Assembly (NCBI GenBank): GCA_023251835.1
Contig: JAHEXZ010000030.1
Span: 1-38,278, forward strand
Direction of reading: 5' to 3'
Length of the DNA: 38,278 nt
From: Bacteroidota bacterium
Lineage (GTDB): Bacteria; Bacteroidota; Bacteroidia; 2-12-FULL-35-15
The first letter of the stretch is position 1, and every line of letters starts with the position of its first letter. A program made the translations under genes and the position numbers. The notes under the pieces are model-generated. The model searched no databases and was not told where the DNA came from. It saw only the letters and a list, made by a program, of their open reading frames with translations. Below are positions 1-36,848 of this stretch, piece after piece.

Positions 1-1059
1 TGATGGACACTTAATTGTTCCATAAGAACAAAAGACGCAGCAATCGCCCTGCTTAGGTTTTATAACTTTTTTACAATTTTCACATTCATAAAAAAACTGG
101 CAAGCATCAGTTGGCATTATTTCAGATTTCTTATGACCACAATAAGGACAGGTAATAACAGATTGAAATTTAACAGGCTTTTCTTCAACAATTGAGTTAG
201 CAATTAATTCTGTTATATCAATTCCATTTGAAGGATGTGGAATAGTATTGCAGGTAATAATTCTACCGGCTCCGGATTTCTGTAGCTTTTCAAAAGCATT
301 TCCGGCAAATACACCATGTACCCCCACACATACAGGAGGTTTCATTCCGGACTTTTTGAGATGAGTAATTGTTTCTATCATGGTTTGTGCAGTAGAAATT
401 ATATCATCCACCAATACAGGAGTATGATTCTTGTATTTTTCAACCTGCGGAACAGCAATTTTCACTTCTTTATCACCTAACCTTGTTTTTTCAAGTACGA
501 TAAAAGGAGCATTTGCATTTTTTGCTACTTCTGAAACCCATTGTTCGCTTTCCGCATCCGGCCCTATTAATAGGGGGTTACTTATATGTTCACTTATATA
601 TGATGAAATAAGACGCGAGGCATGAAGCACCTTACAAGGAATTGAATAAATTTCACCCATGGAATGTCTTCGGTGCAAATGTGGATCAATGGTAATGAGC
701 GTATCTGCAAATTCTGGAATAAGGGAAGCGAAGTATTCGGAGGTTATTCCTTCTCCCTGATTAAAAACTTTATCCTGGCGCATATAAGCAAGATAAGATG
801 CAACAAGGCAGGTAGAATCTGCCCCCAGCGATTTCAATGTTTTAGATAAAAAGTACAGAGGCAATAATTTCTCATCAGGATAAGCCAGCGTACACACCAT
901 AATGGTTTTCCTGCTTTCTACTTCGCTTAGGACACGCACGTATGTTTCTCCATCGGGGAAATGCCGTATTACGGCTTCTCCTATATCAGCCTTTATAGCT
1001 GTTGCAATACTTTTTGCAAGCATTTCATTTCCGGGTAATGCAAATACAACAGGTTTCAT
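1..1059 (-). CDS. PRPP synthetase-like protein with C-terminal GDCCVxCSYG Cys-rich domain (partial)
   Basis: I translated this gene by hand. It starts at ATG 1059 and stays open for 353 codons to the window edge, so the stop lies outside. Residues 1-300 look like ribose-phosphate pyrophosphokinase, which makes PRPP from ribose 5-phosphate and ATP: FPDGETYVRV, YLAYMRQDKVF, TIDPHLHRRHS and the PRPP loop VLVDDIISTAQTM. From about residue 305 a second unit follows without a stop: CPYCGH, MPTDACQFFYEC, CENCKK, GDCCVFCSYGTIKCPS. That unit matches a small Cys-rich family (GDCCVxC domain, some members selenoproteins) that I know as free-standing proteins of about 70 residues. The spaced CxxC pairs suggest metal binding, which is inference. 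The start overlaps the stop of the upstream phosphorylase gene by ATGA, implying translational coupling. The catalytic N-half is somewhat divergent, so it may be a paralogue rather than the housekeeping prs. Confidence 0.85.
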   Translation of the reverse strand, partial: MKPVVFALPGNEMLAKSIATAIKADIGEAVIRHFPDGETYVRVLSEVESRKTIMVCTLAYPDEKLLPLYFLSKTLKSLGADSTCLVASYLAYMRQDKVFNQGEGITSEYFASLIPEFADTLITIDPHLHRRHSMGEIYSIPCKVLHASRLISSYISEHISNPLLIGPDAESEQWVSEVAKNANAPFIVLEKTRLGDKEVKIAVPQVEKYKNHTPVLVDDIISTAQTMIETITHLKKSGMKPPVCVGVHGVFAGNAFEKLQKSGAGRIITCNTIPHPSNGIDITELIANSIVEEKPVKFQSVITCPYCGHKKSEIMPTDACQFFYECENCKKVIKPKQGDCCVFCSYGTIKCPS

Positions 1060-2570
1060 TTTTCTATACTTATAATACCGTTATCACTTTTCATATAATT
1101 TATGGCGTAATCCAACTCTCCTTTGGCTTCGGCATAAACAGTAAATAATACTTCACCCACGTTAACTTTTTTACCAAGCGGGGACAAAAATAAAATGCCT
1201 GCTGATGAAAATTTAGGAGCACCGGCAAGCTTTGCCACACGTGCCAGTTTGCGATTATCAATAGCTTTTATAAGTCCTTCCTTATCTGATAATACATCAT
1301 ATTTATATTTTGCATATACAGGTTCTCTGAATCCTCCCTGTCTTTCACAAATAGATTGAAATTTTGCCCAGGCCTTGCCGTTTTCAAGAAATTCTTTTGC
1401 AACACTGTTTCCGGTTCCTGTCGGATATTTGCCAGATAACTCCAATAATGCACCTGCCAATGTAACAGCTCTGTCTTTTAAGTCCTGCGGAGCGTTTTTT
1501 TCATTTTTTAGCACAGACAAAATATCCATTGCTTCCAATGAAGGACCTATACCTCTTCCAACCGGTTGCGAACCATCCGTTATTATTACTTTCACATGCA
1601 AATCAACTAGTTTTCCAACAGTTTCAAAATCATTCTGAAGTTTTTTAGCATCGCTGACAGATCTGACTTTAGCTGTTTCCCCAACCGGGATATCAATCAC
1701 TACATGAGTTGCACCTGCTGCGGCTTTTTTTGAAAGAACAGATGCAATCATTTGTCCTTTGCTATCCACATCCAATGATTTTTCGACTGAAATGAGAATA
1801 TCATCAGCAGGACTGAGATTTACAGCACCTCCCCAAACAATACAACCATTTTCCTTCCCCACTATTTGTTTTATTTCATTCAGCTCAAATTCCACAGAGG
1901 TCATTGTCTCCATAGTATCAGCCGTTCCGGCAGGAGAGGTAATAGCTCTTGAAGATGTTTTGGGAATGGTTAATCCTGCTGCTGAAACAATACTCACAAC
2001 AATGGGAGTTGTGCGATTGCCCGGTAATCCGCCAACACAGTGTTTATCCAAAATCATGGCGTTGTGCCATTTTATTTTTTTTCCGGCATTTATCATTGCT
2101 TTGGTTAATCCTATTATTTCATTTAACGAAAGATTTTCGCCTGAACATGCGGAAATAAAGGCTGCTAATTCAATGTTGGAGTATTTACCAGCTACCACAT
2201 CCGTTATAATGCTCTGAAAATGCAGTTCGTTTAGCTCTTTTCGATACATTTTTGCCCGTACATAGCGTAACGAATCAATGTGTTCTAAATGTGAAAAGGC
2301 TATACAGTCTCCATCCTTTACTGTTAGTCTTTTCATGGCTTCCATTGACAGGCCGGCTTCATCGTGATGTAGTAAATCTGAATGAACAACATTCAATGTT
2401 GCGATGATACTTCTGCCATTGTAATGAATTACTATCCGCGTTAATGCAGTAAACCCTTCAGATTGGCACACATGGCAATCCGAGCGCATAAAAACAATAT
2501 TTTCCCTGTAGGTGTCAATTCCTATATTTTTTACTTTTAATGTATTACTTGTATTTGAGCACTTATTCAT
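1056..2570 (-). CDS. AMP phosphorylase / thymidine phosphorylase family protein
   Basis: Member of the nucleoside phosphorylase II superfamily. The signature around DKHCVGGLPGNRTTPIVV followed by TSSRAITSPAGTADTME fits the AMP-phosphorylase-like branch (archaeal DeoA type, about 500 residues) better than the 440-residue bacterial thymidine phosphorylases. AMP phosphorylases convert NMP plus phosphate to base plus ribose 1,5-bisphosphate; the substrate here is inferred. I chose ATG 2570 (MNKCSNTSNT, 504 aa). The longer frame from 2675 adds 35 residues that lie inside the metallo-hydrolase gene and do not resemble the family. The chosen start overlaps the upstream gene by 8 bases and the stop overlaps the next gene by ATGA. 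It shares an operon with a PRPP-synthetase-like enzyme and a nuclease-type metallo-hydrolase, which suggests ribose-phosphate recycling from nucleotides. Confidence 0.85.
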   Translation of the reverse strand: MNKCSNTSNTLKVKNIGIDTYRENIVFMRSDCHVCQSEGFTALTRIVIHYNGRSIIATLNVVHSDLLHHDEAGLSMEAMKRLTVKDGDCIAFSHLEHIDSLRYVRAKMYRKELNELHFQSIITDVVAGKYSNIELAAFISACSGENLSLNEIIGLTKAMINAGKKIKWHNAMILDKHCVGGLPGNRTTPIVVSIVSAAGLTIPKTSSRAITSPAGTADTMETMTSVEFELNEIKQIVGKENGCIVWGGAVNLSPADDILISVEKSLDVDSKGQMIASVLSKKAAAGATHVVIDIPVGETAKVRSVSDAKKLQNDFETVGKLVDLHVKVIITDGSQPVGRGIGPSLEAMDILSVLKNEKNAPQDLKDRAVTLAGALLELSGKYPTGTGNSVAKEFLENGKAWAKFQSICERQGGFREPVYAKYKYDVLSDKEGLIKAIDNRKLARVAKLAGAPKFSSAGILFLSPLGKKVNVGEVLFTVYAEAKGELDYAINYMKSDNGIISIEK

Positions 2571-3945
2571 GGATCTCAACTTTTTCATTAAGTACGGGGA
2601 TCTCGCAGTCCCAACCATACACATCTTTAATTTTAACCCTGAGTGCGTCTGCTGACTGAGGTTCACCATGCACAATAAAAATTTTCTCCGGACTTTTTTT
2701 TAAATGACTCAACCAATTGATTAATTCTTTTTGATCCGCATGAGCAGATAAACCTTGTACATTTTCAATATTGGCTTTAACGTTATAATACTGTCCGTAA
2801 AGTTTGATTTCTTTAACTCCATCCAGCAGTTGTCTTCCTCTGGTACCTTCGGCCTGGTAGCCTGCAAGCAATATGGTTGCAGAATCATCTCCAAGATACT
2901 TCCGGAAATAAGCAAGCACCCGTCCACCGGAAGCCATACCGCTGCCTGCAATAACTATTTTAGCACTTTTATCAGCAATAAGCCTTATCGTTTCTTCAAT
3001 GGTTTGTATATATCTTATGTCCTTGCACATCTGGCTGCATTGGTCAGCCGGAAGTTTATGCCATTCTGTATAATGCTGAAAAATATCCAGTACATTTTTC
3101 CCCATAGGACTATCCATATATACCGGGATCTCAGGAATTTCCCCTTTTTTTCTTAACTGCCAGAGCAGATACATCAGCATTTGCGTACGTTCCACTGCAA
3201 AACTGGGTATGATAATAATGCCTTGCTTTTTTGCAGCATTATTAATTATCTCTATCAGCTGTTCTTCCGGGCGATCAGGGTGCAGGCGATCCCCGTAAGT
3301 GGATTCAATTATTAAAATATCTGCCGCTTCCGGTTTTTGTGGAGGATACATTAGTAAATCATTCTCTCGTCCTACGTCACCGGAGAAAACGATTAACTTA
3401 TTACCAATTTTCAATTCAATAAATGTTGCCCCTATAATGTGGCTATTGTACCTGAAACGAAAATAAATTTTGTCTCCTATTTCTACCCATTTATCAAGTG
3501 GCTGGGCAAAAAAATGTGGTAAAGTTTTTTCTACATCTTTTAAATCATACAAAGGCAGGGCAGGTTTGTGTTTTGAATACCCTTTTGCATTGGCTCTCTC
3601 GGCATCTTCTTCCTGAATTTTTGCACTGTCGCGTAAGATAATTTTTGTAACTTCAATCGTTGGGGAAGTTCCATAAATTAATCCCTGAAACCCTTGTTTT
3701 ACGAAACGTGGCAGATATCCAACATGATCAAGATGGCCATGTGTAAGCAAAACCAAATCTATCTTAGCAGGCTCAGCAGCAAGGGCTTCCCAATTTAATA
3801 ACCGAAGTTTTTTTAAGCCCTGAAACAAACCGCAATCAATAAGAATATTTTTTGCGGAAGTTTGAACTAGGTACTTCGAGCCAGTGACAGTTCCTGCAGC
3901 ACCTAAAAACTGAATTTTTATGTTGTTGTTTTTTGACATAATCAT
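2563..3945 (-). CDS. beta-CASP metallo-beta-lactamase fold hydrolase (RNase J/CPSF-like)
   Basis: 460 residues, a typical length for bacterial MBL-fold beta-CASP proteins of the YSH1/CPSF73 type. The metal site THGHLDHVG is at residues 68-76 (H69, H71, D73, H74). A further SGDVGRENDLL supplies the motif-III-like Asp region. The beta-CASP cap is around SFAVERTQMLMYLLW and MDSPMG, and the C-terminal RMMBL part carries GLSAHADQKEL and FIVHGEPQSA. Proteins of this group act as endo/exoribonucleases in the cytoplasm; this member's substrate is unknown. The start overlaps the ATPase stop as ATGA (3945-3942), so the two are translationally coupled. Its place between a cation pump and a nucleotide phosphorylase suggests RNA turnover feeding nucleotide salvage, which is inference. 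Confidence 0.9.
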   Translation of the reverse strand: MIMSKNNNIKIQFLGAAGTVTGSKYLVQTSAKNILIDCGLFQGLKKLRLLNWEALAAEPAKIDLVLLTHGHLDHVGYLPRFVKQGFQGLIYGTSPTIEVTKIILRDSAKIQEEDAERANAKGYSKHKPALPLYDLKDVEKTLPHFFAQPLDKWVEIGDKIYFRFRYNSHIIGATFIELKIGNKLIVFSGDVGRENDLLMYPPQKPEAADILIIESTYGDRLHPDRPEEQLIEIINNAAKKQGIIIIPSFAVERTQMLMYLLWQLRKKGEIPEIPVYMDSPMGKNVLDIFQHYTEWHKLPADQCSQMCKDIRYIQTIEETIRLIADKSAKIVIAGSGMASGGRVLAYFRKYLGDDSATILLAGYQAEGTRGRQLLDGVKEIKLYGQYYNVKANIENVQGLSAHADQKELINWLSHLKKSPEKIFIVHGEPQSADALRVKIKDVYGWDCEIPVLNEKVEIHE

Positions 3946-6572
3946 TGTTTAGCAATTCCTAACCTTTTTCCTATCTGTATTATAATAAGTGATACTATAC
4001 TTGCCGCTATTGAAACTAACCAGTCATATACTGACATTTCATATAACGATAGCACTTCCCTTACAGGAATGATAAAGTATACACTTAATAAAATCAATAT
4101 AGAAAACACAATTGCTCTCCACACATATTTATTTCTGAAAACCTCAGAACGAAAAAAAGAAGATCCGCTACTTCCCATATTAAAAACATGGAGGAGCTGA
4201 GAAAAAATAAGTGTAAAGAATAAAATATTATTGCAAAGCTCCGGGTTCCATGTTTCTGTTTTATGTATTGTAAAATGGCTGATTAAGACAGCACCTACAC
4301 TCGTTGTGCCAATGATGATGGAATAGAAGGAGATAGCGATCCACCTTTTACGATCAATGATAGGTTCATTTATATTTCTTGGAGGTTGCCGCATGATGTT
4401 GCTGCTACCTCCAGTAACACCTAATGCAAGAGCTGGCAGAACATCGGTTATAAGATTAATAAAAAGTATTTGTAATGGGAATAGCTGAAAGTGAAGATTA
4501 AAGATTGAAGCAGTGGCAATCACCATTAACTCACTGAGGTTACAGGAAAGCAGAAAAATGACGAACTTTCTTATATTATCGAATATGATGCGCCCCTGTT
4601 TAATTGCGATTACTATGGATGAAAACGAATCGTCCTTCAATACCATATCAGCTACTTCCTGTGAAACCTGTGTACCCCTTAACCCCATGGCAATACCGAT
4701 GTCGGCTTTTTTTAATGCGGGAGCATCATTTACACCATCGCCCGTCATTCCCACAATATTTTTTCTTTCCTGTAAAACAGAAACCAAATCAAGTTTCTGT
4801 TTGGGACTTACCCTTGCAAATATTTTTGTGTTCAGCCAATTTGTTTTTTCTTCTTCAGAAAGTTGCTCATAATTTTTCATCTCCTTTCCCGGTACTACTT
4901 TAGCATTATTATCCCCGACTATCCCAAGTTTCAGAGCAATGTTTTTGGCTGTAGCCGGATGATCGCCCGTAATCATTATCACATTGATACCAGCCGATTT
5001 ACATTCCTCTATTGCTGCATACACCTCTTCCCTTGGGGGATCAATCATGCCGAATAATCCGGCAAATACCAGATTCTTTGACAAGTCTTCATCTGCTGAT
5101 GTGGTTGGCTTATAGGCCCCTGCAATTACTCTTAATCCTGTATCAGCAAGTTTTTCTGCTTTTTGTAACCAATGTTCTTTCTTTTCTTTATATAGTTCGG
5201 TGATACCATTTTTTTCAAGAATATGGGTACAGCGCATTAATAATTCTTCCGAAGCACCTTTTGCATAAACGGTATACTCTTTTTCTGTTTGATGCAATGT
5301 TGCCATTATTTTAGTTTCGGAAGAAAAAGGTTCTTCCTTCGTTTTTGGAAATCTGTTCCTGTATTCCTGAATATTGATATTGTTTTTTAGGGCAAACTTC
5401 AGAAGGCCGGTTTCAAGAGGATCTCCAATTTCTTTAATCGCTCCGTTACGGTTTTGTAATTCGGCAGTATTGCATAAAACCGCAATGCAGTTGATAATTT
5501 CCAAAGCCTCTGTATTTTCAGCAGGAGTGAGGATTGAATTGACTTCTATTTTATTTTGCGTAAGGGTTCCTGTTTTATCAGTACATATTACATTGGTTCC
5601 TCCCAGAGTTTCAACTGCCGACAATTTTTTTACAATCACATTATGCCTTGCCATTTTCATCATTCCCTGTGCCAATGCCATTGTGGCTACTATTGGCAAG
5701 CCTTCAGGTATAGCTGCCACTGCCAGCGCAATAGAAGTTTCGAGCATTTCAAGTATTTTTTGCCCGTTTAAAAGTCCGGCAATAAAAATTACTACAACCA
5801 GGGCTACTGTTATCCAAATAAGTTTTTTGCTGAAATCTTCCAGTTTTTTTTCAAGAGGTGTTGCGGCCTGGTCTGCCAATTGAACCATCCGGGCAATTTT
5901 TCCAAGCTCGGTATCCATACCTGTTTCAGTAATTACCACGTAGCCGTTTCCTTTGGTAGAATATGTCCCTTTATAGACCATGTTATTTCGCTCAGCAAGG
6001 GTGATATCGGCTTGCAATTTTCCGGTTTGTTTTTCAACGGGTACAGATTCACCCGTTAATGCCGATTCATCAATTTGCAGTTGGGAGGCATTGAAAATTC
6101 TTCCATCGGCAGGAACCATATCTCCGGCTTCAATATAAACCACATCGCCCGGAACAATATCTTCAGCATTTATTTCTTCGAGTTTTTTATCCCGAAGGAC
6201 TTTAGCAGGAACAGCAGATAGTTTTTTAAGCGCATTCATGGAACGTTCCGCCTGGTATTCCATGTAAAATCCGATGATGGCATTGATAAGGATCACGATA
6301 AGAATGGCTATGCCGTCCAACCATTCTCCAAAATAAAAGGATAATCCCGCAGCAAAACACAGAAACCATACAATAGGGCTTTTGAATTGGCTCAGGAAAA
6401 TAAATCCTACATTCCTGCTTTTTTGCTCCTCTATTTTATTGAATCCATATTCCTTCAAACGTTTTTCAGTTTCAATTGATGACAAGCCATTGGTAGCATC
6501 AGACTGAAGCACATTTAGCACAACCGATGCTTCTGTAGCAAAAGGAGGAGTATTTAATCTAATGCTTCCCAT
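3942..6572 (-). CDS. cation-transporting P-type ATPase (P2A, Ca2+-type)
   Basis: 876-residue integral membrane pump with all P-type landmarks. There is an N-terminal cation-ATPase domain, TGES at 173-176 in the actuator domain, PEGLP at 289-293 in M4, phosphorylated Asp332 in DKTGTLTQN, and the hinge TGDGVNDAPALKKADIGIAMG region. M5 carries the pattern LLSCNLSEL and M6 carries NLITDVLPALALG; these match the Asn/Glu and Asn/Thr/Asp ligands of SERCA/PMR1 calcium pumps. Calcium or manganese export is therefore the likely role; Na+/K+ or H+ pumps are less likely. The first 14 bases overlap the upstream nuclease gene. Cation P-ATPases of this type are often found in bacterial stress or low-oxygen gene clusters, in line with the regulator at the head of this operon. 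Confidence 0.93.
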   Translation of the reverse strand: MGSIRLNTPPFATEASVVLNVLQSDATNGLSSIETEKRLKEYGFNKIEEQKSRNVGFIFLSQFKSPIVWFLCFAAGLSFYFGEWLDGIAILIVILINAIIGFYMEYQAERSMNALKKLSAVPAKVLRDKKLEEINAEDIVPGDVVYIEAGDMVPADGRIFNASQLQIDESALTGESVPVEKQTGKLQADITLAERNNMVYKGTYSTKGNGYVVITETGMDTELGKIARMVQLADQAATPLEKKLEDFSKKLIWITVALVVVIFIAGLLNGQKILEMLETSIALAVAAIPEGLPIVATMALAQGMMKMARHNVIVKKLSAVETLGGTNVICTDKTGTLTQNKIEVNSILTPAENTEALEIINCIAVLCNTAELQNRNGAIKEIGDPLETGLLKFALKNNINIQEYRNRFPKTKEEPFSSETKIMATLHQTEKEYTVYAKGASEELLMRCTHILEKNGITELYKEKKEHWLQKAEKLADTGLRVIAGAYKPTTSADEDLSKNLVFAGLFGMIDPPREEVYAAIEECKSAGINVIMITGDHPATAKNIALKLGIVGDNNAKVVPGKEMKNYEQLSEEEKTNWLNTKIFARVSPKQKLDLVSVLQERKNIVGMTGDGVNDAPALKKADIGIAMGLRGTQVSQEVADMVLKDDSFSSIVIAIKQGRIIFDNIRKFVIFLLSCNLSELMVIATASIFNLHFQLFPLQILFINLITDVLPALALGVTGGSSNIMRQPPRNINEPIIDRKRWIAISFYSIIIGTTSVGAVLISHFTIHKTETWNPELCNNILFFTLIFSQLLHVFNMGSSGSSFFRSEVFRNKYVWRAIVFSILILLSVYFIIPVREVLSLYEMSVYDWLVSIAASIVSLIIIQIGKRLGIAKQ

Positions 6573-7419
6573 TGTTCATCAATTTACGGCATAGCTGGTT
6601 TCCTTCCTTAAGGATCGAATCAATCCGGGAAGGGCTAATTCCAATAGCACTTAGCCGATTTTTATCTTCACAAACTTCTTTACATAACACTATGTTATTT
6701 TCTAACAGCTGTTGTTTTTCTTTTTTAGAAAGTGTAGTAAGGCAGGTAACAGGATATAACCCCAGGGTATCTATCAAATCTTTTAGGCTTCCTTGTTTAG
6801 GAAAATCCCAACCCAATAAATTAAGCCCGGCACAAGTTCCATATTGAATAGCATCGCTTGTAAAACGAGTATTTGTTACAACCCATCCCTGATGAAATTT
6901 TGTACTATGCCCCGGAAGCATTACCCATGAGGCCTCAACATCTTTAAAACGTGCCTGTATGTATAAGGGGATTTTTACATCACAAACAGTTCCCGGTTGA
7001 TTGTGATATTTACATTCAATCATAAAATGATGATGGTCTTTTTCAGCAATCACATCAATTTCATGGTTTACGCATTTACCTTTTACAATTTGTCCAACCA
7101 TTATTGCATATCCCTGGTATTTAAGAATTTCACCTACGTATTTCTCAAAGGGATAGCCTGATGGCCCTAACTCCATTATACCTCTTTTCAGATTATATCT
7201 TGCAGCCAGGATACCTGAAGTTTGCCGTAATAAATTAAATGCAATACGATAGATTTTTTTAGTTGAAATACCTTCATAAAGTTCAGAACGGACTTCATTC
7301 AAGATATTGTCAATAGTATATTCACTCGCTCCTGCTCTTTGCAGGGAAGCACGTAATTTTTCCTCTGAAAATGGAACAACCATCCCTGATGCTTTCGTGA
7401 TTAATATATTCTTTTTCAT
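6559..7419 (-). CDS. ATP-cone plus Mrr-like restriction endonuclease domain protein
   Basis: 286 residues in two recognisable parts. Residues 1-90 look like an ATP-cone, the nucleotide-sensing domain of ribonucleotide reductases and NrdR (ITKASGMVVPFSEEKLRASL, then STKKIYRIAFNLLR). Residues about 100-215 form a PD-(D/E)xK nuclease core: GYPFEKYVGEIL, then HEIDVIAE, then FMIECKYH, giving D and ExK catalytic residues, with GWVVTNTRFTSDA further on as in Mrr-type domains. The C-terminal 70 residues are helical and contain a helix-hairpin-like stretch ending in ISPSRIDSIL. It overlaps the ArsR gene by ATGA, so it is the second gene of the operon. Nucleotide-controlled DNA or RNA cleavage is the simplest reading, but no target can be inferred. 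No methyltransferase partner is nearby, so it is not a classical restriction system. Confidence 0.82.
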   Translation of the reverse strand: MKKNILITKASGMVVPFSEEKLRASLQRAGASEYTIDNILNEVRSELYEGISTKKIYRIAFNLLRQTSGILAARYNLKRGIMELGPSGYPFEKYVGEILKYQGYAIMVGQIVKGKCVNHEIDVIAEKDHHHFMIECKYHNQPGTVCDVKIPLYIQARFKDVEASWVMLPGHSTKFHQGWVVTNTRFTSDAIQYGTCAGLNLLGWDFPKQGSLKDLIDTLGLYPVTCLTTLSKKEKQQLLENNIVLCKEVCEDKNRLSAIGISPSRIDSILKEGNQLCRKLMNNGKH

Positions 7420-7730
7420 TTATTAGGATTACTCTCCATGCACTTGTTTATACTGATTGCAAGGCATCTGATTAATTCATATTCATCATTTATAAAGTAA
7501 TAAGAATTGTAACCTTCTTTTTCCTGACTCAAAACAGAACAATTTTTCATCACTATTAAATGTCTTGAAGTCTGTGGCTGAGTTAATCCAAGACTTTCCT
7601 GAATTTGTTTGACAGACATTTTCAGGATTCTTTTTCCCCCTAAGAGGCTAAGAATTTTAATCCGAACAGGATGACCCAATGCCTTCATCATTTCAGAGGC
7701 TCTGATAAAGGATTCATCAATCGTTTTCAT
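7416..7730 (-). CDS. ArsR-family winged-helix repressor
   Basis: 104 residues with the ArsR/SmtB fold: an opening helix (EMMKALGHPVRIKILSLL), the recognition helix (SVKQIQESLGLTQPQTSRHLIVMKN) and the wing (SQEKEGYNSYYFI). Such repressors respond to metals, sulfur species or redox. Here three cysteines are present (C64 just after the recognition helix, C89 and C97 in the last helix), so a thiol-based sensor is possible, but the exact metal ligand set of known groups is not evident. It is the first gene of the minus-strand operon. An AT-rich palindrome begins inside its start codon (7728-7773), as expected for autoregulation. The downstream gene overlaps it by four bases. Confidence 0.88.
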   Translation of the reverse strand: MKTIDESFIRASEMMKALGHPVRIKILSLLGGKRILKMSVKQIQESLGLTQPQTSRHLIVMKNCSVLSQEKEGYNSYYFINDEYELIRCLAISINKCMESNPNK

Positions 7731-9931: not shown

Positions 9932-11614
9932 ATGAATCAACTAATTGAATGTGTTCCTAATTTTAGTGAAGGGAACGATATGAACATCATCAAACAAATT
10001 ACAGATGAGATAGAATCGGTAGAAGGTGTAAAGCTGTTGAATATAGACCCCGGAAAAGCAACAAACCGTACGGTGGTGACATTTTTGGGAAATCCTCAGG
10101 CAGTAATAGAAGCAGCATTCCTGGCAATAAAAAAAGCAAGTGAAGTAATTGATATGTCTAAACATAAAGGGGAGCACCCTCGTATGGGAGCTACAGATGT
10201 TTGTCCGCTCATTCCTATTGCTGGTATTTCTATGGAAGAAACTGCGGAGTATGCTAAAAGGCTTGGTGCAAGGGTAGGAGAGGAGTTAGGAATTGCCGTA
10301 TACCTCTATGAAGCGGCACAGGAAAACAAACAGAGGAATAATCTGTCTGTTATTCGTGCCGGAGAATATGAAGGTTTTTTCAAGAAAATAAATTTGCTGG
10401 AATGGAAACCTGATTATGGGCCATCTGTACATTCCGTAAAATCAGGTTCTACAGTGATTGGAGCACGAGACTTTCTTGTTGCTTACAACATCAACCTGAA
10501 TACTACATCCACGCGCAGAGCCAATTCCATTGCATTTGATGTGCGTGAAGCGGGACGTGTGAAACGGGAGGGTAATTCGGTTACAGGAAAAATAGTAACC
10601 GATGAAAAGGGGAACCCTGTTAATATTCCCGGAACATTAAAATCTGTGAAGGCGATAGGCTGGTACATTGAAGAATATGGTGTTGCACAAATATCCATGA
10701 ACCTTACCAATATCAATATAACACCTGTACATATTGCTTTTGATGAAGTATGTAACAAAGCAAATGAACGTGGAATAAGGGTTACAGGCTCTGAACTGGT
10801 AGGTTTGATTCCTCTTAAAGCAATGCTGGATGCCGGTAAATATTTCTTGGAAAAACAAAACCGATCAACCGGTGTTTCGGAAAAAGAACTCATCAAAATT
10901 GCTGTAAAATCGCTTGGATTGGATGAATTAGCTCCTTTCAAACCCCAAGAACGAATTATTGAATACCTGCTAAAAGATTCATCAAAGGAAAGGCTGATAA
11001 AAATGAATCTTTCTGAATTTGCTGATGAAACAGCAAGTGAAAGTCCTGCTCCTGGTGGAGGCTCTATTTCAGCATATATTGGCTCATTAGGTATTGCACT
11101 TGGAACTATGGTGGCTAATTTATCATCACATAAACCGGGTTGGGATGAGCGTTGGAAGGAGTTCTCCGATTGGGCAGAGAAAGGGCAATATTATAAGAAC
11201 GAGCTGCTGAAACTGGTAGATGAAGATACCAATGCTTTCAATAAAATTATGGCTGCTTTTGGTTTACCAAAGGCAACGGATGAAGAAAAAAAAGCTCGTA
11301 CTGTTGCTATACAAGATGCTACCCGTTATGCAACAGAAGTACCTTTTAAAGTAATGCAGTTATGCTATGGTTCAATGGGGGTAATCAGGGCTATGGCAGA
11401 AACCGGAAACCCTAATTCTGTCACAGACGCAGGTGTTGGAGCTTTGTGTGCACGTTCTGCCGTAATGGGTGCTTTTCTGAATGTAAAAATAAATGCATCC
11501 GGATTGGCAGATAAAGCCTTTGCAGAGCAACTTATTGCCAAAGGAAACGTATTAGAGAGCAAGGCGCAAGAGGCCGAAATGGAGATTTTGAATATTGTTA
11601 ACAGCAAGTTATGA
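9932..11614 (+). CDS. ftcD: Bifunctional glutamate formimidoyltransferase / formimidoyltetrahydrofolate cyclodeaminase
   Basis: 560 residues covering both halves of the vertebrate-type FTCD enzyme. Residues 1 to about 300 are the formiminotransferase (start MNQLIECVPNFSEGND, then HKGEHPRMGATDVCPLIPI with the catalytic His region, and LNTTSTRRANSIAFDVRE). Residues about 350-560 are the cyclodeaminase (FADETASESPAPGGGSISAY and the helical tail). It transfers the formimino group from formiminoglutamate to tetrahydrofolate, then releases ammonia to give 5,10-methenyl-THF and glutamate. Directly follows hutI, completing the folate-linked branch of histidine catabolism. The stop overlaps the start of the patatin-like gene as ATGA (11611-11614). 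Confidence 0.96.
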   Translation: MNQLIECVPNFSEGNDMNIIKQITDEIESVEGVKLLNIDPGKATNRTVVTFLGNPQAVIEAAFLAIKKASEVIDMSKHKGEHPRMGATDVCPLIPIAGISMEETAEYAKRLGARVGEELGIAVYLYEAAQENKQRNNLSVIRAGEYEGFFKKINLLEWKPDYGPSVHSVKSGSTVIGARDFLVAYNINLNTTSTRRANSIAFDVREAGRVKREGNSVTGKIVTDEKGNPVNIPGTLKSVKAIGWYIEEYGVAQISMNLTNINITPVHIAFDEVCNKANERGIRVTGSELVGLIPLKAMLDAGKYFLEKQNRSTGVSEKELIKIAVKSLGLDELAPFKPQERIIEYLLKDSSKERLIKMNLSEFADETASESPAPGGGSISAYIGSLGIALGTMVANLSSHKPGWDERWKEFSDWAEKGQYYKNELLKLVDEDTNAFNKIMAAFGLPKATDEEKKARTVAIQDATRYATEVPFKVMQLCYGSMGVIRAMAETGNPNSVTDAGVGALCARSAVMGAFLNVKINASGLADKAFAEQLIAKGNVLESKAQEAEMEILNIVNSKL

Positions 11615-30195: not shown

Positions 30196-31149
30196 ATGGA
30201 AACAGCAAATGTTCTTGATGTTACGGTAATAGAACCCCGTTTGAAACATCCCACTATTTTTCAAAAATTTGATGCGCTTGAAAAGGGCGAATCTTTTGTA
30301 ATTCATAATGACCATGATCCCAAGCCATTGTATTATCAATTATTGGCCGAGAGAGGTAATACTTTTACCTGGCAATATCTTGAAGAAGGCCCTCAATGGT
30401 GGAAAGTAAAAATCGGGAAATTAAAAGCCGGTGAAAAAGAACCCACCATTGGTGAATTAGTTACAAAAGACTTCCGCAAAGCAGAAGTATTTAAAAAATT
30501 TGGTCTTGATTTCTGTTGTGGTGGTAAAAAAACGCTGACTAAAGCCTGCGCTGAAAAAGGACTTGATGTAGTACAAATAGAAAAAGAACTTAAAGAAATA
30601 GATGAACAACCTGCTAAATCTTCACAGGATTATACAAGTTGGGATTTAGGTTTTCTTGCCGATTATATAATAAACACACACCATAAATATGTTTTACAGT
30701 CCATGCCTGTTATTTTTGAATATACTCAAAAAGTAGCTAAAGTGCATGGCGATAACCATCCGGAAGCGATAGAAATAGCCAATACCTTTTTAAAGGTTGT
30801 TGACGAACTTAACCGTCACATGATGAAAGAGGAAAATGTACTTTTTCCTTATATCAAACTATTAGCGTCAGCCAAAAAAGATGGGGAAAATATTCAACCG
30901 TCACCATTTGGAACAATAGAAAATCCTGTCAGAATGATGGAACATGAACACGACATGGTAGGTGAATGGATGGAAAATATTAATAAGTTATCTGGTGGCT
31001 ATACTCCTCCTGCTCATGCTTGTACTACATTCCGTTTATCGTATGCTAAACTAAAAGAGTTTGAAGACGATCTTCATCAGCATATACACTTAGAAAACAA
31101 TATTCTTTTCCCAAAAGCCATAGCTTTGGAAAAAGAGCTGTTAGGTTAA
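30196..31149 (+). CDS. ric: Iron-sulfur cluster repair di-iron protein, DUF2249 fused
   Basis: 317 residues in three parts. Residues about 5-75 are a DUF2249-type module (FDALEKGESFVIHNDHDPKP, FTWQYLEEGPQWWKVKI). Residues about 84-135 are the ScdA_N segment with the paired Cys107-Cys108 (TIGELVTKDFRKAEVFKK, then GLDFCCGGKKTL). Residues about 150-310 are the hemerythrin-like di-iron domain with ligands in YIINTHHKYV, LNRHMMKEENVLFPYI, MMEHEHDMVG and DLHQHIHLENNILFP. Ric/YtfE/ScdA repairs Fe-S clusters damaged by nitric oxide or peroxide. It leads a cluster with a DUF1858/DUF2249 protein, a heme-copper-like membrane protein and a SufT-like protein, and has a Crp/Fnr-type box 97 bases upstream. 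Confidence 0.93.
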   Translation: METANVLDVTVIEPRLKHPTIFQKFDALEKGESFVIHNDHDPKPLYYQLLAERGNTFTWQYLEEGPQWWKVKIGKLKAGEKEPTIGELVTKDFRKAEVFKKFGLDFCCGGKKTLTKACAEKGLDVVQIEKELKEIDEQPAKSSQDYTSWDLGFLADYIINTHHKYVLQSMPVIFEYTQKVAKVHGDNHPEAIEIANTFLKVVDELNRHMMKEENVLFPYIKLLASAKKDGENIQPSPFGTIENPVRMMEHEHDMVGEWMENINKLSGGYTPPAHACTTFRLSYAKLKEFEDDLHQHIHLENNILFPKAIALEKELLG

Positions 31150-35936: not shown

Positions 35937-36848
35937 TTATTCATGCCGGGCCCCCTCAATTATTCTAAAAATATGCAATATGTATGGAAACAGAGCATCC
36001 ATTGTTTCTTTGGCACCTTTGGTAGAACCTGGCAATGCAAGAATCAGTGTATTGCCTTTCATTCCGGCAACACCTCTTGAAAGCATCGAAAAAGGAGTAC
36101 GGTCCTGACCATAATTCCTGGCTGCCTCCATTATTCCCGGAATTTCTTTGTCAAGCAACGGACGTATTGCTTCAGGAGTAACATCTCTGGGCGAAAGGCC
36201 TGTTCCCCCGGTAAAAATAATAATGTCATTCTTTAACAAATAAAGCGCTTCCACTTTGCCTTGAATATCTGTAGTTTCATCAGGGATAATTGAATAATCA
36301 GAAACGCTTACCTTACATGATTCTAATTTTTTAATAATTGCTTTGCCTGCTTTATCTTCTTTTTTCCCTGCGGAAATGCTATCAGAACAAACAATAACAG
36401 CAGCTTTTAAATCTTTTCTGAACTTATCAGTAAAATCCGATTTACCGCCTCTTTTTTCTTTCAACCGGATAGAAGAAATTTCAATACCTTTATCAATAGG
36501 CTTAAGCATGTCATACATCGTCAATGCCACAACAGAAACACCATGCATAGCTTCTACTTCCACACCTGTTTTATAAATTGTATGTACCTCCATTTCAATA
36601 TGAATTTCCATGCCTGTAATTTCGTATCGGACAGCAGTATATTCAACAGGAAGAGGGTGACAGTCAGGAATCATATCACTGGTTTTTTTAACAGCAAATA
36701 ATCCTGCAGTTTTAGCCATTTCAAACACATCTCCTTTGGGGACGGTTTTATTTTTAACAGCATCAATGGTTTCCTGCCTGCTTACTTTAACAATGGCTTT
36801 TGCAATTGCTTCCCTCAGGCTGCTCGATTTAAATGTTATATCTACCAT
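35937..36848 (-). CDS. moaCB: Bifunctional molybdenum cofactor protein MoaC-MoaB
   Basis: 303 residues joining two pathway enzymes. Residues 1 to about 143 are MoaC (cyclic pyranopterin monophosphate synthase): [20 protein letters not shown] around Lys54-55 and His64, [20 protein letters not shown], and [11 protein letters not shown] with the conserved Lys132/Lys136 region. Residues about 148-303 are MoaB/MogA (molybdopterin adenylyltransferase): [39 protein letters not shown] (TGGTG 213-217) and a late [13 protein letters not shown] motif. It takes the MoaA product to cyclic pyranopterin phosphate and later activates molybdopterin by adenylation. Such MoaC-MoaB fusions are known in some bacteria. 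It is separated from moaE by a 156-base spacer with tandem repeats. Confidence 0.95.

What the first reader, a model, noticed from the sequence alone, without database searches (positions are those of the whole stretch)
1..1059. PRPP-synthetase-like enzyme fused to a GDCCVxCSYG Cys-rich domain
The frame runs without stop from a PRPP-loop enzyme into CPYCGH, CENCKK and GDCCVFCSYG. That domain is normally a stand-alone ~70-residue protein, sometimes a selenoprotein. The fusion could give a ribose-phosphate enzyme redox or metal control, or place the Cys domain in the same stress pathway.
Basis: partly seen in the sequence, partly recalled or inferred. Interest (0 to 1): 0.75.

Follow-up and report, generated by a model that had tools for sequence, protein, structure and literature searches.

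The report
Sugar-phosphate enzyme with cysteine-rich tail
A spare copy of the enzyme that makes PRPP, a building block of nucleotides, carries at its end a small cysteine-rich domain that usually sits beside mercury transporters; the joined protein is real and kept by selection in three bacterial genomes, which hints at a link between metal stress and nucleotide supply.

Summary
Window 1-1059, read on the minus strand, is one open frame: an accessory PRPP synthetase (NF005537, aa 1-294) followed by a GDCCVxC domain (NF041374, aa 300-353). Base 1 is a contig end. A second contig of the same genome overlaps it by 119 identical bases and ends the gene after 10 more residues (363 aa). It is not a frameshift: the same junction, with the same linker length, occurs in two other genomes (same genus; another family of the class). 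In all three both halves are under purifying selection, while the linker drifts. The fusion is rare: most close relatives are unfused. In one Flavobacteriales lineage a stand-alone GDCCVxC gene sits inside the same operon. The enzyme is a second, accessory copy in an operon headed by an ArsR/SmtB-type regulator and next to metal pumps; a housekeeping copy lies elsewhere. GDCCVxC, a family without known function, usually follows mercury-transport genes or is fused to MerC or MerT. Best reading: a thiol metal-binding tail tethered to an accessory PRPP synthetase, protecting or tuning it under thiophilic-metal stress. The fusion and its conservation are shown; metal binding and regulation are inferred. 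New domain combination of two known parts.

The parts
1..1059 (-). Fused gene: accessory PRPP synthetase + GDCCVxC domain (353 of 363 codons; the last 10 codons and the stop lie on contig C127)
178..1059 (-). PRPP synthetase part, aa 1-294 (NF005537/PRK07199)
   Evidence: E 3e-114; fold as solved PRPP synthetases (model of the G002 fusion)
163..177 (-). Core of the linker (aa 295-299); aa 287-299 evolve freely among the three fusions
1..162 (-). GDCCVxC domain, aa 300-353
   Evidence: NF041374, E 3e-27
139..150 (-). CPYC, first CxxC
   Evidence: sequence; Cys invariant in 18 aligned members
67..84 (-). CENCKK, second CxxC
   Evidence: sequence; Cys invariant
19..48 (-). GDCCVFCSYG signature
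   Evidence: sequence; its Cys invariant
1056..2675 (-). AMP-phosphorylase-like 'thymidine phosphorylase' (NF003338) directly upstream; its stop overlaps the prs start (ATGA); its own start codon is uncertain
2563..3945 (-). Beta-CASP metallo-beta-lactamase-fold protein of the same operon
   Evidence: same gene order on plasmids
3942..6572 (-). P-type ATPase, calcium-pump type
6559..7419 (-). ATP-cone + Mrr-like endonuclease domain protein
   Evidence: same gene order
7416..7730 (-). ArsR/SmtB-family regulator, first gene of the overlapping run
   Evidence: NF033788, 67 bits against cut-off 55

Best explanation
It is a genuine two-domain protein. The first domain is an accessory PRPP synthetase that belongs to a mobile operon (ATP-cone nuclease, beta-CASP MBL, AMP-phosphorylase-like enzyme, Prs) associated with metal pumps. 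The second is the GDCCVxC module, a nine-cysteine zinc-ribbon-like domain that otherwise works next to mercury and other thiophilic-metal transporters. Most likely mechanism: the module binds soft metal ions, or cycles its thiols, in the cytosol. Tethered by a free linker to the synthetase, it shields or tunes that copy of the enzyme so that PRPP supply continues or is adjusted under metal or thiol stress. Shown: the fusion, its conservation, its operon and the family's mercury-transport context. Inferred from the families: PRPP synthetase activity and metal binding. Speculative: that metal or redox state changes PRPP output.
For: Both domains score far over the family cut-offs in three genomes. 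Same junction, no gap in the linker, Ka/Ks 0.07-0.13 for the enzyme and 0.05-0.12 for the Cys domain, against 0.40-1.05 for the linker. All nine core Cys are invariant across fused and stand-alone members. The operon is headed by an ArsR/SmtB regulator and followed by CusA/CusB-type efflux genes. A stand-alone GDCCVxC gene lies inside the same operon in L069/L071. Mercury link: 25 of 28 best-scoring class loci have MerT/MerP within 50 bp on the same strand or are fused to MerC; 7 of 10 annotated plasmids read place it after merT/merP/merF and one in an arsenic operon; MerC and MerT fusions. A housekeeping Prs is present elsewhere (C117).
Against: No experiment shows that GDCCVxC binds any metal. 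The three fusion-bearing genomes show no MerT. Two close relatives, L062 and L123, are unfused with no remnant downstream, so the domain is dispensable for this Prs. The predicted structure does not place the domain confidently on the enzyme.
Confidence: 0.5

Rival explanations
1. Pure tether: the Cys domain does its own job (soft-metal sink or relay to the efflux system) and Prs is only a soluble carrier and expression partner; PRPP synthesis is not affected.
For: The linker is unconstrained; the domain also rides on MerC, MerT and long lipoprotein-like proteins that share nothing else; in L069/L071 it is a separate gene of the same operon.
Against: The linker keeps its length in three genomes; the enzyme itself stays under strong selection.
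Confidence: 0.27
2. Zinc-ribbon interaction module: the domain holds a structural Zn and binds a partner protein or nucleic acid, bringing Prs to its operon partners such as the AMP phosphorylase or the beta-CASP protein.
For: CxxC...CxxC spacing; weak sequence hits to a TFIIS-type zinc ribbon and rubredoxins (E 0.015-0.1) and a sub-threshold Pfam zinc ribbon, PF23451.
Against: The five further Cys of the domain are invariant, more than one structural Zn site needs; the genomic context is transport of mercury and arsenic.
Confidence: 0.15
3. Neutral or recent accident: two genes joined by loss of a stop, without function of the joined form.
For: Rare; the closest unfused relative, L062, is about as close to the fused genes as they are to each other.
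Against: Synonymous sites are near saturation while both halves keep Ka/Ks of 0.13 or less; three species, two families.
Confidence: 0.05
4. Assembly or sequencing artefact.
For: The window starts at a contig end close to the junction.
Against: The junction lies inside contig C101, beyond the 119-base overlap; independent assemblies show the same junction.
Confidence: 0.01

Closest known systems
NF005537 / PRK07199 ribose-phosphate diphosphokinase (accessory; closest solved relatives by sequence are archaeal, such as 1U9Y)
   Same: aa 1-294 match the model over its cut-off; core catalytic residues kept (K191, R193, D218, D219 invariant)
   Different: The unfused relatives read here end at about 290-305 aa; here some 60-70 further residues form a linker and a second domain. 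The sugar-phosphate loop reads STARTM or STAQTM where M. jannaschii has STGGTM
NF041374 GDCCVxC domain (seleno)protein, 'hypothetical protein GOS_B' of the 2008 ocean selenoproteome study (PMC2398784; equated in PMC13188914)
   Same: Full-length domain match; all Cys kept
   Different: Usually a stand-alone protein of about 70 aa behind merT/merP; here a C-terminal domain of an enzyme, with Cys rather than Sec
MerC-GDCCVxC and MerT-GDCCVxC fusions (seen here in L013, L016, L018, L020, L041, L047, L048, L060, L145, L147)
   Same: GDCCVxC as a C-terminal appendage
   Different: The partner is a mercury transport membrane protein, not a cytosolic enzyme
Plasmid operon ATP-cone / MBL / AMP-phosphorylase-like / Prs (e.g. 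Criblamydia sequanensis, Pontibacter actiniarum)
   Same: Gene order and orientation
   Different: Prs ends without the Cys domain; no ArsR gene next to the ATP-cone gene in those two records

Membership tests
PRPP synthetase (NF005537 subfamily) | Score over curated cut-off across the model | tested here: met
   381 bits against 322, aa 1-294
PRPP synthetase (NF005537 subfamily) | PRPP synthetase fold | tested here: met
   G002 fusion: AF2 pLDDT mostly over 90 for aa 1-290; top PDB matches are PRPP synthetases, E about 1e-24, TMt 0.8-0.9
PRPP synthetase (NF005537 subfamily) | Catalytic Lys/Arg of the flexible loop and DD of the PRPP loop | tested here: met
   K191, R193, D218, D219 invariant in 40 sequences; aligned with 1U9Y
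[quoted passage not shown]
   needs an enzyme assay; the sugar-phosphate loop differs from the usual GGT
GDCCVxC (NF041374) | Score over curated cut-off | tested here: met
   94.6 bits against 40, positions 1-54 of 58; 103 bits, positions 1-57, in G002
GDCCVxC (NF041374) | Conserved Cys set (2 CxxC, DAC, GDCCVxC, CP) | tested here: met
   invariant in alignment A2
GDCCVxC (NF041374) | mer-operon neighbourhood (usual, not defining) | tested here: not met
   no MerT in G000, G002 or G040 (the search's own control genomes did not ring either, so absence is not strictly proven)
Zinc ribbon | Two CxxC knuckles in a beta-sheet fold with Zn | tested here: inconclusive
   CxxC pair present; weak PDB hits; domain-alone model pLDDT 56
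Selenoprotein | In-frame UGA with SECIS | tested here: not met
   no in-frame stop; all positions Cys in the three fusions

The most novel reading that the evidence does not exclude
A metal- or thiol-gated PRPP synthetase: the GDCCVxC tail senses soft metal ions and switches or protects the accessory enzyme, so that nucleotide precursor supply is coupled directly to metal stress.
Probability: 0.17. Interest if true: 0.65.

Novelty: new variant of a known kind. Interest (0 to 1): 0.45.

Why it matters
GDCCVxC is a widespread family without known function: 104 of 395 genomes of this class and 348 plasmid records held a match. The only cytosolic enzyme partner met here, together with the family's almost fixed place behind mercury transporters, gives a concrete, testable handle: a soluble chimera whose enzyme activity can be assayed while metal binding by the tail is measured. 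It also draws attention to a mobile accessory PRPP synthetase operon whose role is not described in the papers searched.

Tried and rejected
Frameshift or misassembly: rejected. Simple stop loss from a gdcc gene behind prs: no relative with that order was found; in L069/L071 the stand-alone gene lies upstream of prs, and L062/L123 have no remnant downstream. Single origin of the fusion: neither shown nor rejected (the free tree interleaves unfused L062/L123; AU test p 0.157). AF2 of the domain alone: pLDDT 56, not used for a fold search. A mixed alignment of Prs and GDCCVxC rows misaligned the short domain and was dropped. Tree of the domain alone: too few columns to resolve. Viral contigs: no fused homologue; phage records: only Prs-type matches under 60% identity among the rows shown. 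Paper searches on GDCCVxC and on the operon found no functional study; a preprint on PRPS diversity does not use the words fusion or cysteine.

Full report
Observation. Window 1-1059 read on the minus strand is open from ATG at 1059 to base 1. hmmscan gives ribose-phosphate diphosphokinase NF005537 at aa 1-294 (E 3e-114) and GDCCVxC NF041374 at aa 300-353 (E 3e-27), both over cut-off. Pfam has only the Prs domains and a sub-threshold zinc ribbon for the tail. Base 1 is the end of contig C101. The first 119 bases recur, reverse complemented and identical, at the start of contig C127, which completes the gene...GDCCVFCSYGTIKCPSKQTQIKITCC*, 363 aa in all. C127 goes on with phosphofructokinase and CusA/CusB-type efflux genes; L123 (unfused prs, then phosphofructokinase) and G040 (fused prs, then CusA-type gene) show matching orders, which supports the join.

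Not an artefact. The same fusion is complete in G002 (same genus, 361 aa; public record JAURXZ010000006, Bacteroidia bacterium MAG) and in G040 (another family of the class, 361 aa from its aligned ATG). The junction and linker align without a gap. Nei-Gojobori ratios are 0.07-0.13 for the enzyme, 0.05-0.12 for the Cys domain where computable (two of three pairs), and 0.40-1.05 for the 13-residue linker. Synonymous sites are near saturation, so these are old, separate lineages in which both halves are maintained.

How rare. In the genus (36 genomes searched) 8 accessory Prs loci were found, 2 fused; the housekeeping-type Prs of these genomes are only about 25% identical. The 80 best relatives among species genomes include one fused gene, G002 itself. 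A sample of 395 genomes of the phylum added none among the matches listed. The five closest accessory Prs (three fused, two unfused) group together (SH-aLRT 84). One origin of the fused form is not rejected (p-AU 0.157) but the best tree interleaves the unfused ones, so loss of the tail or more than one gain is possible. No remnant follows the two unfused genes.

Operon. In the window five genes precede the fused one on the same strand with overlapping ends: ArsR/SmtB-type regulator, ATP-cone/Mrr-like protein, calcium-type P-type ATPase, beta-CASP MBL protein, AMP-phosphorylase-like enzyme. The core ATP-cone / MBL / phosphorylase / Prs run recurs on plasmids of Chlamydiota and Bacteroidota, with CusA and P-type ATPase genes near it in one and copper-binding proteins near it in the other, and Prs relatives are found on 579 plasmid records at the threshold used, some of them through the tail alone. 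In two near-identical Flavobacteriales loci, L069 and L071, a stand-alone GDCCVxC gene sits between the phosphorylase and prs, with a methyltransferase-like gene following it: an independent operon link between the two parts.

What the tail is. Within the class 104 of 395 genomes carry the domain. Of the 28 best-scoring new loci, 21 have MerT/MerP on the same strand within 50 bases, 4 are fused to MerC, 2 more have MerT/MerP within 1 kb and one has none; this set is biased to the best scores. Of ten plasmid neighbourhoods read, seven place it right after merT/merP/merF, one in an arsenic operon and two beside thioredoxin-type genes. MerC and MerT fusions are confirmed by Pfam and NCBIfam. A selenoprotein review equates NF041374 with 'hypothetical protein GOS_B', first seen with Sec in ocean metagenomes, function unknown (PMC13188914; PMC2398784). 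All nine core Cys are invariant. No solved structure resembles it beyond weak zinc-ribbon and rubredoxin hits.

Structure. AF2 of the G002 fusion: the enzyme is confident and matches solved PRPP synthetases; residues 298-338 are moderate and the rest of the tail is low, so no docking can be read. The domain alone gave pLDDT 56.

Mechanism. Shown: a conserved two-domain gene in a metal-associated operon. From the families: PRPP synthesis is likely (catalytic residues kept), although the sugar-phosphate loop has Arg, Gln or Met where GGT is usual; soft-metal or thiol chemistry of the tail is likely from its mercury and arsenic neighbours. Inferred: the tail protects or tunes the accessory enzyme under metal stress. 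The strongest rival is a tethered metal sink with Prs as a bystander. I put about 0.5 on protection or tuning, 0.27 on the tether, 0.15 on an interaction module.

Limits. No functional assay; the census tools sample species genomes; absence of MerT in the fused genomes rests on one family search whose controls did not ring; papers held are open-licence only.

Noticed in passing
window 373-411 (-), aa 217-229 of the fused protein, and relatives in alignment A3: The sugar-phosphate (PRPP) loop of this accessory Prs family reads DDIISTARTM/STAQTM/STGMTM instead of the usual ...TGGT; this may alter substrate use and is of interest given its pairing with an AMP-phosphorylase-like enzyme.
   Followed up: partly
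L142, L143, L144 (about 315-339 aa) and L026, L029, L033, L151: GDCCVxC also ends several apparent lipoproteins, including an unnamed 250-residue N-terminal part without Pfam or NCBIfam match.
   Followed up: partly
L209-L224: GDCCVxC genes lie on sixteen contigs of the viral collection (strong matches); whether these are phages or misclassified mobile elements was not checked.
   Followed up: no
window 35937-36848 (-): Fused MoaC/MoaB molybdenum cofactor protein (NF002947, known type) in a Mo-cofactor gene cluster with a MoeB-like gene.
   Followed up: partly
window 30196-31149 (+): Iron-sulfur cluster repair di-iron protein (RIC/YtfE) with an extra N-terminal part of about 84 residues.
   Followed up: no
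window 9932-11614 (+): Glutamate formimidoyltransferase fused to a methenyltetrahydrofolate cyclohydrolase-like part, after hutI: ordinary histidine degradation genes.
   Followed up: partly
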